Assembly (NCBI RefSeq): GCF_009687865.1
Contig: NZ_BLAE01000033.1
Span: 62,001 to 126,000 of the forward strand
Length of the DNA stretch: 64,000 bases
Reading direction: 5' to 3'
From: Acrocarpospora macrocephala
GTDB lineage: Bacteria > Actinomycetota > Actinomycetes > Streptosporangiales > Streptosporangiaceae
The translations under genes and the position numbers were made by a program. How positions within the stretch are numbered: position 1 is the first letter of the stretch; every line of letters starts with the position of its first letter. Positions 17,155 through 62,663 of this stretch are shown here, piece by piece. The notes under the pieces were generated by a model. It was given only the letters and a program-made list of their open reading frames with translations, was not told the origin of the DNA and searched no databases.

Positions 17155-20100
17155 GGGGGGTCACCTCACTTGATCGGAGCAGCTGGACGAGGGTGTCGAC
17201 GTAGGGGGGATCGAACACGCCCCGGTGGGCGCAGCCGAGCCGGTGCACGCTCAGCCCGCCGCCGGCGAGCTCGCGCCACCGGCCGAGATAGTCCCGGTAC
17301 GGCCTGCGCCCGGTCACGGTGTGGTTTCCTCCCGCGCAGTCGTCGCTGGCCACCAGCCGGACCCGTAGCGGCAGGGCGGGGAAGCGGTAGGCGGCGGTGG
17401 CCTCGTCGAGGGCGCGCCAGAGCTCGATCTGCGCGGAGAGCGCGCCGAGGTCCTCGCGGGCGGCGAGGATGCCGAGGTCGGCGAGCATCCGCCTGGCTCG
17501 CAGGTCGGCGACGCGGCGGCCCAGGCGGGTCCGGCCGGGGTCGCGCAGCAGGCTTTCCAGCTGGTCGAAGGTGTCCGCGCCGACGGCGCTGCCGGGGATG
17601 TCGGCCATCGGGTCCAGGAGGGTGAGCTCGGGCGGCGGGTGACCGGCGGCCATCAGCTGGGCGGCCATCTCCCAGGCGATCACGCTGCCGGAGGACCAGG
17701 CCAGCAGGTGGTGCGGGGCCGGGCCGAGCAGGCGGACATAGCGTCCGGCCAGCCGCTGAAGGTCGGCCGCTTCCTCCGGGCCTGGTACGGCGAAGGCGGC
17801 AACCGGGCGCGACAGCCGCTCGGCCACCGGCCGGTACCAGTGCGAGCCGCCGCCCGCCGGGTGCACGGCGTATATCGGGGGAAGGTCCGTCTCCCGCTCG
17901 CGCAACCAGATCAGCGAAGGTTCGGGGAGCGGGGACTGCAGCCTGGCCGCCAGGGCGCGGATGGTCCGCAGTTCGAGGATGTCGTGCGTGCGCAGGGCGA
18001 GCCCGCGCCGACCGGCCAGGGCGACCGCCCGCAGCATCAGGAGAGAATGGCCGCCCAGGTCGAAGAAGTCATCGTCCCTGCCGATCGCGGCCACGCCGAG
18101 GATCTCAGCCCAGATCTCGGCGAGTTCGAGCTCGGCGGGAGTGGCCGGCGGTTCGGAGGCACGCGGGAACGGCCCGGCCGGATCGGGCAGGGCCTTGCGG
18201 TCGAGCTTGCCATTGGCGGTAAGCGGCACCGCCTCGACCTCCACCACCCGCCACGGCACCAGATGCCCTGGCAGCCGCTCCCGCAACCGCGCCAAACACG
18301 CCGACTCGTCAAACCCTCCAGCTGGTACGGCACGAGCCTCCGGCTGATCCCCTCCGGATCGGGGGTGATCGTCGAACCGGCCCCCCGCAGATGCAGCGTG
18401 ACCGACCGCCCGATCTCCCGCAGACACGGTGTGATCGACCAAGCCGTTTCCTGCGGACAGGGCGTGATCGACCAGCTGGTCCCGTGCGGGCACGGCGTGA
18501 TCGGCCGGGCGATCTTTCGCGGGGACGATGTAGCCGATGAGACGGTCGCCCGTTGCCACCACCACGGCTTCAGCCACCTGCGGGTCCTCTGCCAGTGCGG
18601 CCGCGACCTCGCCGGGCTCGACTCGGTAGCCGCGGATCTTGACTTGGTCGTCGAGGCGGCCGAGCAGGTCGAGGTCGCCGGTGGGCAGGACGCGGGCGAG
18701 GTCGCCGGATCGGTACATGCGTGATCCCGGCGGTCCGCAGGGGTCCGGGACGAATCGTTCGGCCGTCAGGGCAGGCCTGGCCCGGTAGCCTCGGGCCACG
18801 CCGACGCCGCCGATCATCAGTTCTCCCGGGGTTCCTTCGGGGCGCGGCTCGAACCAGCGGTCCAGGACTCGCGCGGAGGCTCCCGGCAGGGCTTTGCCGA
18901 TCGGGACCCTCGGTCCTGGGACGGGTGCCGAGGTGGTGAACGCGGTGCAGGCCACGGTGGCCTCGGTCGGGCCGTACTCGTTGATGATCTTGGAGCCGGG
19001 GGCGATGGTGAGCCAGCGTTCGGCCAGGCTGGGGGTGAGGGCCTCGCCGCCGACCAGCCAGGCGCGGGCGAGGCCTTCGGCGGCGGCGGGTGGCAGGGTC
19101 TGGGTGAGGGCTTCCAGATGGGAGGGGGTGAGCTTGACGAAATCGTATGGGCCGCCCCGGAGGAGGAGGTCGCCCAACTGTGCCAGGTCGAGGTCGGGTG
19201 GGAGCAGCCGTACCTGGTGGCCGAGGGCCAGCGGCGCGAACAGGGAGGTGACCGCCATGTCGTAGGCGGCCGAGGAGAACAGCGGCGCGCTGCCCAGGGC
19301 GTCTGCGGCGCGCAGGTAGGACGACAGGCTCCGATGGGTGATCTCGACTCCCTTGGGTCGCCCGGTGGAACCCGAGGTGTAGATCACGTAAGCGAGAGAG
19401 TCGGGATCGACGGCCACCGGCTCAATCGCCTCCGCCGACTGCCCGTCCCGAGGGCTGACCACAGCCAAGGCGCCGCCATCGTGGTCACCGTGACCGCCGC
19501 GCTCGCCCCCGCCTTCACCGCCGCTCTCGCCCTTGCCCTTGACCTGGACTTGGCCCCCGCCCTCGCCTTCACCGCCGCTCTCGCTCTCGACATCGCCCGG
19601 GCCCTGGCCCTCACCCTGGCCCTCGCTCTCACCCTCGCCCTCGCCCTCGCCCTCGCCCTCGCTGAGGAGGATGCGGGCGTCCGCGTCCTCCAGCAGCGCC
19701 ATGCGCCGATGGCGGGGCCAGGACGGTTCGAGCGGGAGGTAGGCCGCCCCCGCGTACCAGATCGCCAGGAACGCGACCAGCAGTTCGGGACCGCGTTCGA
19801 GGCAGACGCCGACGACACGCTCGGGCCCTGCGCCCAGCTCACGCAACCGCCCCGCCAAACGGGACGCGCGATCGTGCAACTCGCCATACGACAGGGGCAA
19901 CTGCCCGGGCCGACCCTCGGTCGTGCTCGCCTCGGTTCCACCGGAAGTGCCGCTCGAATTGCCGCTCTGTGTGACTGCGACCGCTGTCGGGGTGGCCTTG
20001 GCGTGGGCCGCGATCAGGAGCGGAACCGGGCGGAGGGAAGCCTCAAGGGAATCCTCTAGAGGGGCTTCGGCGGATGTGGGGTCGTTCTGGGCGGGGAGGT

Positions 20101-62663: not shown

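What the first reader, a model, noticed from the sequence alone, without database searches (positions are those of the whole stretch)
18330..60475. NRPS genes riddled with about 20 unrelated in-frame minisatellites
Seen directly: seven adjacent NRPS genes carry about 20 tandem-repeat tracts with units of 6 to 66 bp, nearly all multiples of three. No two tracts share a unit, and several units are copies of the adjacent native sequence, so each arose locally. The non-NRPS genes of the same operon have none. NRPS linkers are known to vary, but I know of no description of such systematic expansion at defined surface loops. Inference: these are tolerated slippage sites that lengthen loops and may seed intragenic recombination between modules.
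Basis: partly seen in the sequence, partly recalled or inferred. Interest (0 to 1): 0.88.

Follow-up and report, generated by a model that had tools for sequence, protein, structure and literature searches.

The report
Hypervariable repeat loops in antibiotic-type megaenzymes
A set of giant peptide-making enzymes in a soil actinomycete carries about 20 unrelated short in-frame DNA repeats that lengthen particular surface loops, and a sister species differs in length at nearly all of them, which suggests that these enzymes tolerate large, changing loop insertions at a few preferred places.

Summary
Seven adjacent NRPS genes hold 20 tandem-repeat tracts (8.6% of 45.5 kb; TRF score 80 or more). 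In 19 of 20 the period is a multiple of three; the exception (104 bp) lies at a gene junction. Codon-shuffled genes give none. The tracts are unlikely to be assembly errors: the orthologous cluster of Acrocarpospora pleiomorpha (94% identical DNA) differs in length at 19 of 20, by multiples of three except at that junction. The enzyme cores are under purifying selection (dN/dS 0.18); tract codons much less (about 0.7). Unrelated tracts recur at the same loops of different modules, above all A2-A3 and A8-A9, the loops where methyltransferase domains are known to be inserted into A domains. AlphaFold models of two domains leave the tracts unstructured and fold the rest. The trait is not NRPS-only: two PKS clusters of the same genome have it, whereas a giant PKS cluster of equal GC is almost free. 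Best explanation: recurrent local tandem duplication, filtered for frame and fold, at permissive loops. Why some clusters have it and others not is open.

The parts
17138..25168 (-). N1: NRPS C-A-T-C-A-T-TE
   Evidence: Pfam
25165..28584 (-). N2: NRPS C-A-T
   Evidence: Pfam
28581..39095 (-). N3: NRPS three C-A-T modules
   Evidence: Pfam
39092..46633 (-). N4: NRPS two C-A-T modules
   Evidence: Pfam
46773..53273 (-). N5: NRPS two C-A-T modules
   Evidence: Pfam
53270..56734 (-). N6: NRPS C-A-T; likely start is the GTG at 56734 (ORF listing gave an upstream ATG at 56890)
   Evidence: Pfam; start inferred by comparison with A. pleiomorpha
56835..62663 (-). N7: NRPS A-T-C-A-T (probable start of the assembly line)
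   Evidence: Pfam; order inferred
18365..18503 (-). tract, 33-bp unit, A8-A9 loop of N1 module 2 (module-HMM 982)
19498..19662 (-). tract, 6/54-bp unit, A2-A3 loop of N1 module 2; the one tract with no net length difference from A. pleiomorpha
20854..21155 (-). tract, 15/45-bp unit, C3-C4 loop of the C domain of N1 module 2
23089..23369 (-). tract, 39/78-bp unit, A2-A3 loop of N1 module 1
25645..25836 (-). tract, 45/21-bp units, A8-A9 loop of N2
29032..29301 (-). two neighbouring related tracts (36 and 54 bp), A8-A9 loop of N3 module 3
30320..30553 (-). weaker tract (15-bp unit, score 60-80; not among the 20), A2-A3 loop of N3 module 3
32229..32393 (-). tract, 36-bp unit, T-C linker of N3; nearly absent in A. 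pleiomorpha
36007..36118 (-). tract, 18/36-bp unit, A8-A9 loop of N3 module 1; not expanded in A. pleiomorpha
37039..37215 (-). tract, 12/36-bp unit, A2-A3 loop of N3 module 1; about one copy in A. pleiomorpha
40502..40718 (-). tract, 60/120-bp unit, A2-A3 loop of N4 module 2
42081..42150 (-). tract, 30-bp unit, C3-C4 loop of N4 module 2
43910..43978 (-). tract, 9/27-bp unit, A2-A3 loop of N4 module 1
44378..44656 (-). tract, 66/135-bp unit, C-A linker of N4 module 1
47276..47413 (-). tract, 15/30-bp unit, A8-A9 loop of N5 module 2
55155..55334 (-). tract, 36/72-bp unit, C-A linker of N6
56688..56894 (-). 104-bp tandem duplication (94% alike) across the N7/N6 junction; absent in A. pleiomorpha
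56731..56838 (-). 35-codon mini-ORF made by that duplication; overlaps the N7 stop and the N6 start by GTGA at both ends
57825..58045 (-). tract, 15/75-bp unit, A5-A6 loop of N7 module 2
58948..59497 (-). tract, 63/126-bp unit, C-A linker of N7 module 2
60248..60460 (-). tract, 57-bp unit, in the C domain of N7; splits the Pfam Condensation match, probably the C3-C4 region (the module profile aligns it ambiguously)

Best explanation
These are hypervariable coding minisatellites. Short stretches of native sequence in a few permissive loops and linkers of NRPS modules are tandemly duplicated by replication slippage or unequal exchange; once two copies exist, copy number keeps changing. Duplications that break the reading frame or the fold are removed by selection; those whose length is a multiple of three and that fall in a surface loop persist and drift with little amino-acid constraint. 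The preferred loops are those where NRPS evolution elsewhere has accepted whole catalytic domains (A8-A9 and A2-A3), plus the C-A linker and, in this cluster, the C3-C4 loop. Shown: positions, frame preservation, length divergence between two species, purifying selection on the cores, weak constraint on the tracts, unstructured predicted loops in two modelled domains, recurrence in unrelated clusters and species. Inferred: slippage or unequal exchange as the mutational step, neutrality for enzyme function, ongoing change within the species, and a still unknown cluster-specific factor that sets how many tracts a cluster has.
For: 19 of 20 tracts differ in net length from A. pleiomorpha (tract +-100 bp), all by multiples of three except the junction duplication; 86% of indel bases in the NRPS stretch (2,174 of 2,537) and 60 of 69 gaps of >=6 bp lie within 60 bp of a tract in either genome, although only 15% of the window's sequence does (tracts of score >=60). 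No internal stop in any of the seven orthologous proteins. dN/dS core 0.17-0.18 against tract 0.67-0.74. One native copy in one species, several in the other. Tract-bearing insertions (>=12 aa, tract score >=60) lie in the A2-A3 or A8-A9 bins in 10 of 18 (window), 8 of 11 (other NRPS of this genome) and 14 of 34 (other genomes, with a second NRPS of A. pleiomorpha), against 5.8% by length (in the window one A8-A9 tract fell outside its bin). Loop lengths outside the reference range: C3-C4 83 and 136 aa (305 reference loops, maximum 46), C-A 122, 129, 206 (268, maximum 75), A5-A6 113 (278, maximum 69). AlphaFold leaves residues 109-195 and 532-595 of an A domain and 189-292 of a C domain below pLDDT 50 with most of the rest folded. 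In an NRPS that looks orthologous in five Acrocarpospora species, the A8-A9 loop with an inserted methyltransferase (Pfam hits in 5 of 5) has a tract near the methyltransferase end in four species (G000 and G001 related units, G002 and G004 different ones) and none in G003. Tract periods in sampled stretches of this genome: 56 of 60 divisible by three inside ORFs >=300 codons, 5 of 15 elsewhere.
Against: It does not explain why one PKS cluster of this genome (C20, 165 kb, 2 weak tracts) is almost clean while others with the same GC (C11, C32) are riddled. Core dN/dS does not separate rich from poor clusters. Tract dN/dS is still below 1 in the window, so some constraint or some misalignment of copies remains. 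The C3-C4 loop, used in the window and once in S. iconiensis, held none of the 34 tract-bearing insertions of the other genomes. Some insertions of the two clusters are not tandem repeats (for example a 282-bp one in N5 of A. pleiomorpha). In other clusters compared by the coarse script several net indel sums were not multiples of three; gaps under 6 bp were left out there and I did not resolve them. No enzyme activity was measured. The multiple-of-three rule inside ORFs is partly circular, since an out-of-frame tract would break the ORF used to find it.
Confidence: 0.75

Rival explanations
1. The tracts are selected: repeat-rich loops act as flexible spacers or entropic bristles that tune domain motion, solubility or partner contacts of the assembly line, and copy number is adjusted per module.
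For: Expansions keep to a few loops, among them the C-A linker and A8-A9 in the mobile C-terminal subdomain (mobility from general knowledge); clusters stay under purifying selection although they carry 50-150 extra residues in single loops; inserts are more hydrophilic than the proteins as a whole (mean -0.34 against -0.06); some other genera and Streptomyces iconiensis show the same habit.
Against: Sequence and length change between sister species, with expansion in one and near absence in the other at the same loop; hydropathy of the coding frame is not exceptional among the six frames; tract dN/dS about 0.7; many modules of the same line have loops of normal length.
Confidence: 0.13
2. The cluster is decaying: relaxed selection lets junk accumulate.
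Against: Core dN/dS 0.18 lies within the range of tract-poor clusters (NRPS C3 0.16, PKS C20 0.19-0.26, NRPS C59 0.48); no stops over about 15,000 codons in two species.
Confidence: 0.03
3. A local mutational property of the tract-rich clusters (replication timing, transcription, chromosome arm position or past gene transfer) raises the duplication rate, and the loops only record it. Not exclusive with the best explanation.
For: Strong difference between clusters of the same genome and same enzyme class (C20 against C11 and C32 PKS).
Against: Flanking 17-20 kb stretches on both sides of the window cluster have 0-1 tracts, so any such property is confined to the megasynthase genes; GC content does not differ.
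Confidence: 0.3
4. The tracts are hot spots that drive recombination between modules.
For: Repeats are recombinogenic in general (general knowledge).
Against: No shared units between modules; the only inter-module homology block found ends 684 bp or more from any tract.
Confidence: 0.03
5. Assembly artefact.
For: Both genomes are draft assemblies (166 and about 160 contigs), and repeats are where drafts err.
Against: Copies within tracts differ (TRF matches 70-95%), and a separately assembled species has its own versions at the same sites.
Confidence: 0.02

Closest known systems
Coding minisatellites / VNTR loci of bacteria (recalled, no call)
   Same: In-frame tandem repeats with copy-number change between related strains or species
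   Different: About 20 unrelated tracts concentrated in the genes of one assembly line, recurring at equivalent loops of homologous modules
Interrupted adenylation domains (M, Ox or KR domain inserted between a8-a9 or sometimes a2-a3; PMC11355689, passages read)
   Same: Same two insertion loops; A-domain core predicted to keep its fold around the insertion
   Different: The inserted matter here is repeat peptide with no recognised domain, born by local duplication
Inter-motif architecture of NRPS (PMC10212144, passages read)
   Same: Same domain and motif frame
   Different: That survey of MiBiG domains reports that most inter-motif regions have narrow length distributions (standard deviation under 10 aa); here single regions are 50-150 aa longer
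Near-identical 650-1000 bp intragenic repeats of PKS/NRPS genes (PMC4487206, passage read)
   Same: Repeats inside megasynthase genes that trouble short-read assembly
   Different: Those are long near-identical stretches of different modules, not minisatellites in loops

Membership tests
Hypervariable coding minisatellite (VNTR) | Head-to-tail units, more than chance | tested here: met
Hypervariable coding minisatellite (VNTR) | Unit length keeps the frame | tested here: met
   19 of 20 tracts; exception at a gene junction
Hypervariable coding minisatellite (VNTR) | Copy number differs between related genomes | tested here: met
   Net length differs at 19 of 20 tracts between two species; 94.1% identical over 52.6 kb aligned
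Hypervariable coding minisatellite (VNTR) | Copy number varies within a species | not testable with these tools
   One genome per species held
Interrupted adenylation domain | Insertion between a8-a9 or a2-a3 with adenylation core intact | tested here: met
   A3 pattern in 12 of 13 A domains; activity not tested
Interrupted adenylation domain | Inserted segment is an auxiliary catalytic domain | tested here: not met
   Pfam (E<=0.001) finds C, A, T and TE domains in the seven proteins, apart from two hits under their cut-offs: Transferase inside a C domain and Pentapeptide_2 on the repeat at N5 1960-1998; two modelled domains have unstructured inserts
Contingency (phase-variable) locus | Copy-number change switches expression or frame | tested here: not met
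   Between two species the changes keep the frame; expression not tested
NRPS assembly line | C, A, T domains in modules and a terminal TE | tested here: met
   13 A, 12 C, 13 T and one TE by Pfam and module profile, split matches merged by me

The most novel reading that the evidence does not exclude
Loop minisatellites are an early step of assembly-line evolution: megasynthase loops that first grow by slippage become landing sites into which catalytic domains such as methyltransferases are later inserted, and certain clusters of actinomycetes carry a cluster-specific habit of loop hypermutation that keeps producing such sites. The coincidence of the two hottest loops with the known domain-insertion sites, and tracts beside an inserted methyltransferase in four of five apparent orthologs, fit this; the order of events is not shown.
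Probability: 0.12. Interest if true: 0.85.

Novelty: new variant of a known kind. Interest (0 to 1): 0.62.

Why it matters
NRPS modules are described as nearly invariant in length between most motifs, and engineers seek safe places to cut and insert. Here nature has run a repeated insertion experiment: the same loops accept 50-150 unrelated residues in module after module while the core stays under purifying selection. If the enzymes are active, that gives a map of permissive sites. It also poses a testable question: why some clusters of one genome accumulate tracts and others, of the same enzyme type and GC, do not.

Tried and rejected
Relaxed selection as the cause of tract-rich clusters: not borne out by core dN/dS. 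GC content as the cause: PKS clusters C20 and C11 have 0.716 and 0.717. Shared unit or mobile repeat family: rejected. Tracts as ends of inter-module exchange: rejected on the one block found. Selection for hydrophilic inserts judged by comparing the coding frame with the other five frames: no clear signal (coding frame -0.34, others -0.29 to -1.68). Strand composition bias common to the tracts: none seen. Concerted evolution (copies more alike within than between species): mixed; 9 of 12 tracts tried had enough copies in both species. Literature: ten searches (two of them on the genus and on interrupted A domains rather than on repeats) over open-licence PubMed Central papers listed no paper whose title or abstract start describes such tracts in NRPS or PKS genes. 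I read passages of PMC11355689, PMC4487206, PMC8097286 (reached by id from a reference list), PMC10212144 and PMC9205934 (there one reference-list line); of the other papers I saw listings only. Subscription papers and preprints are not held, so this is no proof of absence.

Full report
Setting. The window is contig C33, 62001-126000, of an unnamed 12.1-Mb genome in 166 contigs. Its closest relative among those searched, G001, is taken to be Acrocarpospora pleiomorpha NBRC 16267: its contig C50 has the same length (95,511) as NZ_BLAF01000050.1 found. The genus is then Acrocarpospora (Streptosporangiaceae). Seven minus-strand NRPS genes (N7 to N1 in reading order) encode 13 A, 12 C and 13 T domains and a final thioesterase, split matches merged. 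Beside them lie a luciferase-like monooxygenase gene, an ornithine carbamoyltransferase-like gene, an M20 peptidase gene and an ABC transporter ATPase gene.

Observation. TRF at score 80 or more finds 20 tracts, 8.6% of 17138-62663. None appears in 20 codon shuffles of the same genes or in the window's other 18.5 kb. 79 NRPS-bearing loci of other bacteria, flanking genes included, hold 27 tracts in 1.31 Mb, 0.2 per 10 kb, against 4.4 to 4.6 in the NRPS genes here. 19 of 20 periods are multiples of three. The exception, a 104-bp duplication, spans the N7/N6 junction. It leaves both reading frames open and makes a 35-codon mini-ORF joined to N7 and N6 by GTGA overlaps at each end; 104 is 2 modulo 3, the only class that keeps such a chain in register (one case, so chance one in three).

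Comparison with the sister species. The A. pleiomorpha cluster aligns end to end: 52.6 kb aligned at 94.1% identity. Net length differs at 19 of 20 tracts, by -120 to +195 bp, each a multiple of three except the 104-bp junction; the tract at 19498 has no net difference. 2,174 of 2,537 indel bases lie within 60 bp of a tract in either genome. The seven orthologous proteins are free of internal stops; six of seven mapped with length divisible by three, and the seventh (N6) apparently failed because its start lies in the 104-bp duplication. Several tracts exist as a single native copy, or hardly at all, in the other species. Nei-Gojobori dN/dS is 0.17-0.18 in the cores and 0.67-0.74 in tract codons; third-position GC falls from 0.88 to 0.78.

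Where they sit. A profile of 75 reference modules places 18 tract-bearing insertions of the window in few loops: A2-A3 6, A8-A9 5 (one binned outside by its alignment), C-A linker 3, C3-C4 2, A5-A6 1, T-C linker 1. A further tract (60248-60460) splits the N7 C domain. A2-A3 and A8-A9 make up 5.8% of the module by length but hold 10 of 18, 8 of 11 and 14 of 34 tract-bearing insertions in the window, in other NRPS of the genome, and in other genomes; the last set includes a second NRPS of A. pleiomorpha. Binomial P is 1e-8, 2e-8 and 2e-9. These P values are generous: the null is uniform although loops vary more than cores anyway, and some entries are orthologs of each other (for example the methyltransferase loops below). 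In the 34, other places were C 135-160 (5), C-A (4), T-C (1), A5-A6 (1), outside all bins (9), C3-C4 none. Reference modules too vary most in A2-A3 and A8-A9 (standard deviations 18 and 27 aa, maxima 333 and 355, which I take to be inserted domains), but C3-C4 (2.5), C-A (2.4) and A5-A6 (3.4) are nearly constant in 268-305 reference loops and still reach 136, 206 and 113 aa here. [quoted passage not shown] AlphaFold2 models of one A domain and one C domain leave the tracts below pLDDT 50 and fold most of the rest; the A model matches solved A domains, among them the methyltransferase-interrupted 5wmm.

Recurrence. In an NRPS present in five Acrocarpospora species and judged orthologous by its flanking sequence, the A8-A9 loop of one module holds a methyltransferase (Pfam, 5 of 5). 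A minisatellite sits near its end in four of five: related units in the two close species, different units in two others, none in the fifth; three of the four also have a second tract inside the insertion. In the family survey one locus was taken from each of 26 other genera, chosen from the strongest C-domain matches: 18 had no tract, 3 fewer than one per 10 kb, 5 had 1.7 to 4.7 per 10 kb. Streptomyces iconiensis has 7 tracts of score 80 in 21 kb; 9 of its 11 insertions of 15 aa or more carry a tract (score 60), 6 of the 9 in loops also used in the window. In the sampled NRPS spans 81 of 81 tracts had periods divisible by three; this count is partly circular because spans were taken from open frames. 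Outside ORFs of 300 codons only 5 of 15 tracts in sampled stretches of this genome did, against 56 of 60 inside.

Not NRPS only. In the same genome a giant PKS cluster (C20) has 2 weak tracts in 165 kb of large ORFs, while PKS clusters C11 and C32 have 13 in 26 kb and 7 in 43 kb; smaller PKS stretches on C7 and C127 have none in 12 and 9 kb. GC content is the same. Core dN/dS against A. pleiomorpha does not separate tract-rich clusters (window 0.18, PKS C11 0.20, PKS C32 0.22) from intermediate ones (NRPS C38 0.18, C80 0.16, C11 0.23, C107 0.29) and poor ones (PKS C20 0.19-0.26, NRPS C3 0.16, NRPS C59 0.48); against other species C32 gave 0.31 (G002) and C20 0.28 (G004). So the density is a property of individual clusters, and its cause is unknown. 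A few other genes, such as a YcaO and an S15 peptidase gene, also carry tracts.

'Tolerated, locally born loop expansions at defined loops' is well supported. 'Seeds for recombination between modules' is not: no shared sequence between tracts of different modules, and the single 92% inter-module block, the C domains of N5, ends far from tracts. Ten searches of an open-access library listed no description of the phenomenon (calls under Tried and rejected; listings and a few passages seen). Known parts: coding minisatellites and interrupted A domains. New, as far as seen: their density, their repeated independent birth at the same loops of one assembly line, and the contrast between clusters of one genome.

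Noticed in passing
window 48852-50124 and 51957-53229: C domains of the two N5 modules are 92% identical in DNA over 1,273 bp, a duplication or gene conversion; A. pleiomorpha matches the same stretch a second time too (89%).
   Followed up: partly
window 56688-56894: 104-bp duplication at the N7/N6 junction makes a 35-codon mini-ORF coupled by GTGA to both neighbours; not in A. pleiomorpha.
   Followed up: yes
L207, L208, L209, L210 (own genome, contigs C11 and C32): Two PKS clusters are riddled with in-frame tracts, in contrast to the giant PKS of contig C20.
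   Followed up: partly
L038, L159, L160, L162, L164: Minisatellites near the end of a methyltransferase inserted in the A8-A9 loop of one module: four of five Acrocarpospora species, with partly different units.
   Followed up: partly
L070: Streptomyces iconiensis NRPS locus with seven tracts of score 80 in 21 kb.
   Followed up: partly
window about 12680-13260: Stretch beside the cluster that does not align between the two Acrocarpospora species, between two well aligned flanks.
   Followed up: no
L048:14403-14715 and 15143-15294; L049:18152-18340: In-frame tracts in an S15 peptidase, a YcaO and a sarcosine-oxidase-like gene of the same genome.
   Followed up: no
L032 (own genome C59): NRPS with dN/dS 0.48 against A. 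pleiomorpha, the highest of the clusters compared, yet no tracts of score 80.
   Followed up: no
   Followed up: no
A. pleiomorpha N5, opposite window 49878: A 282-bp insertion in a C domain that TRF does not call a tandem repeat.
   Followed up: no
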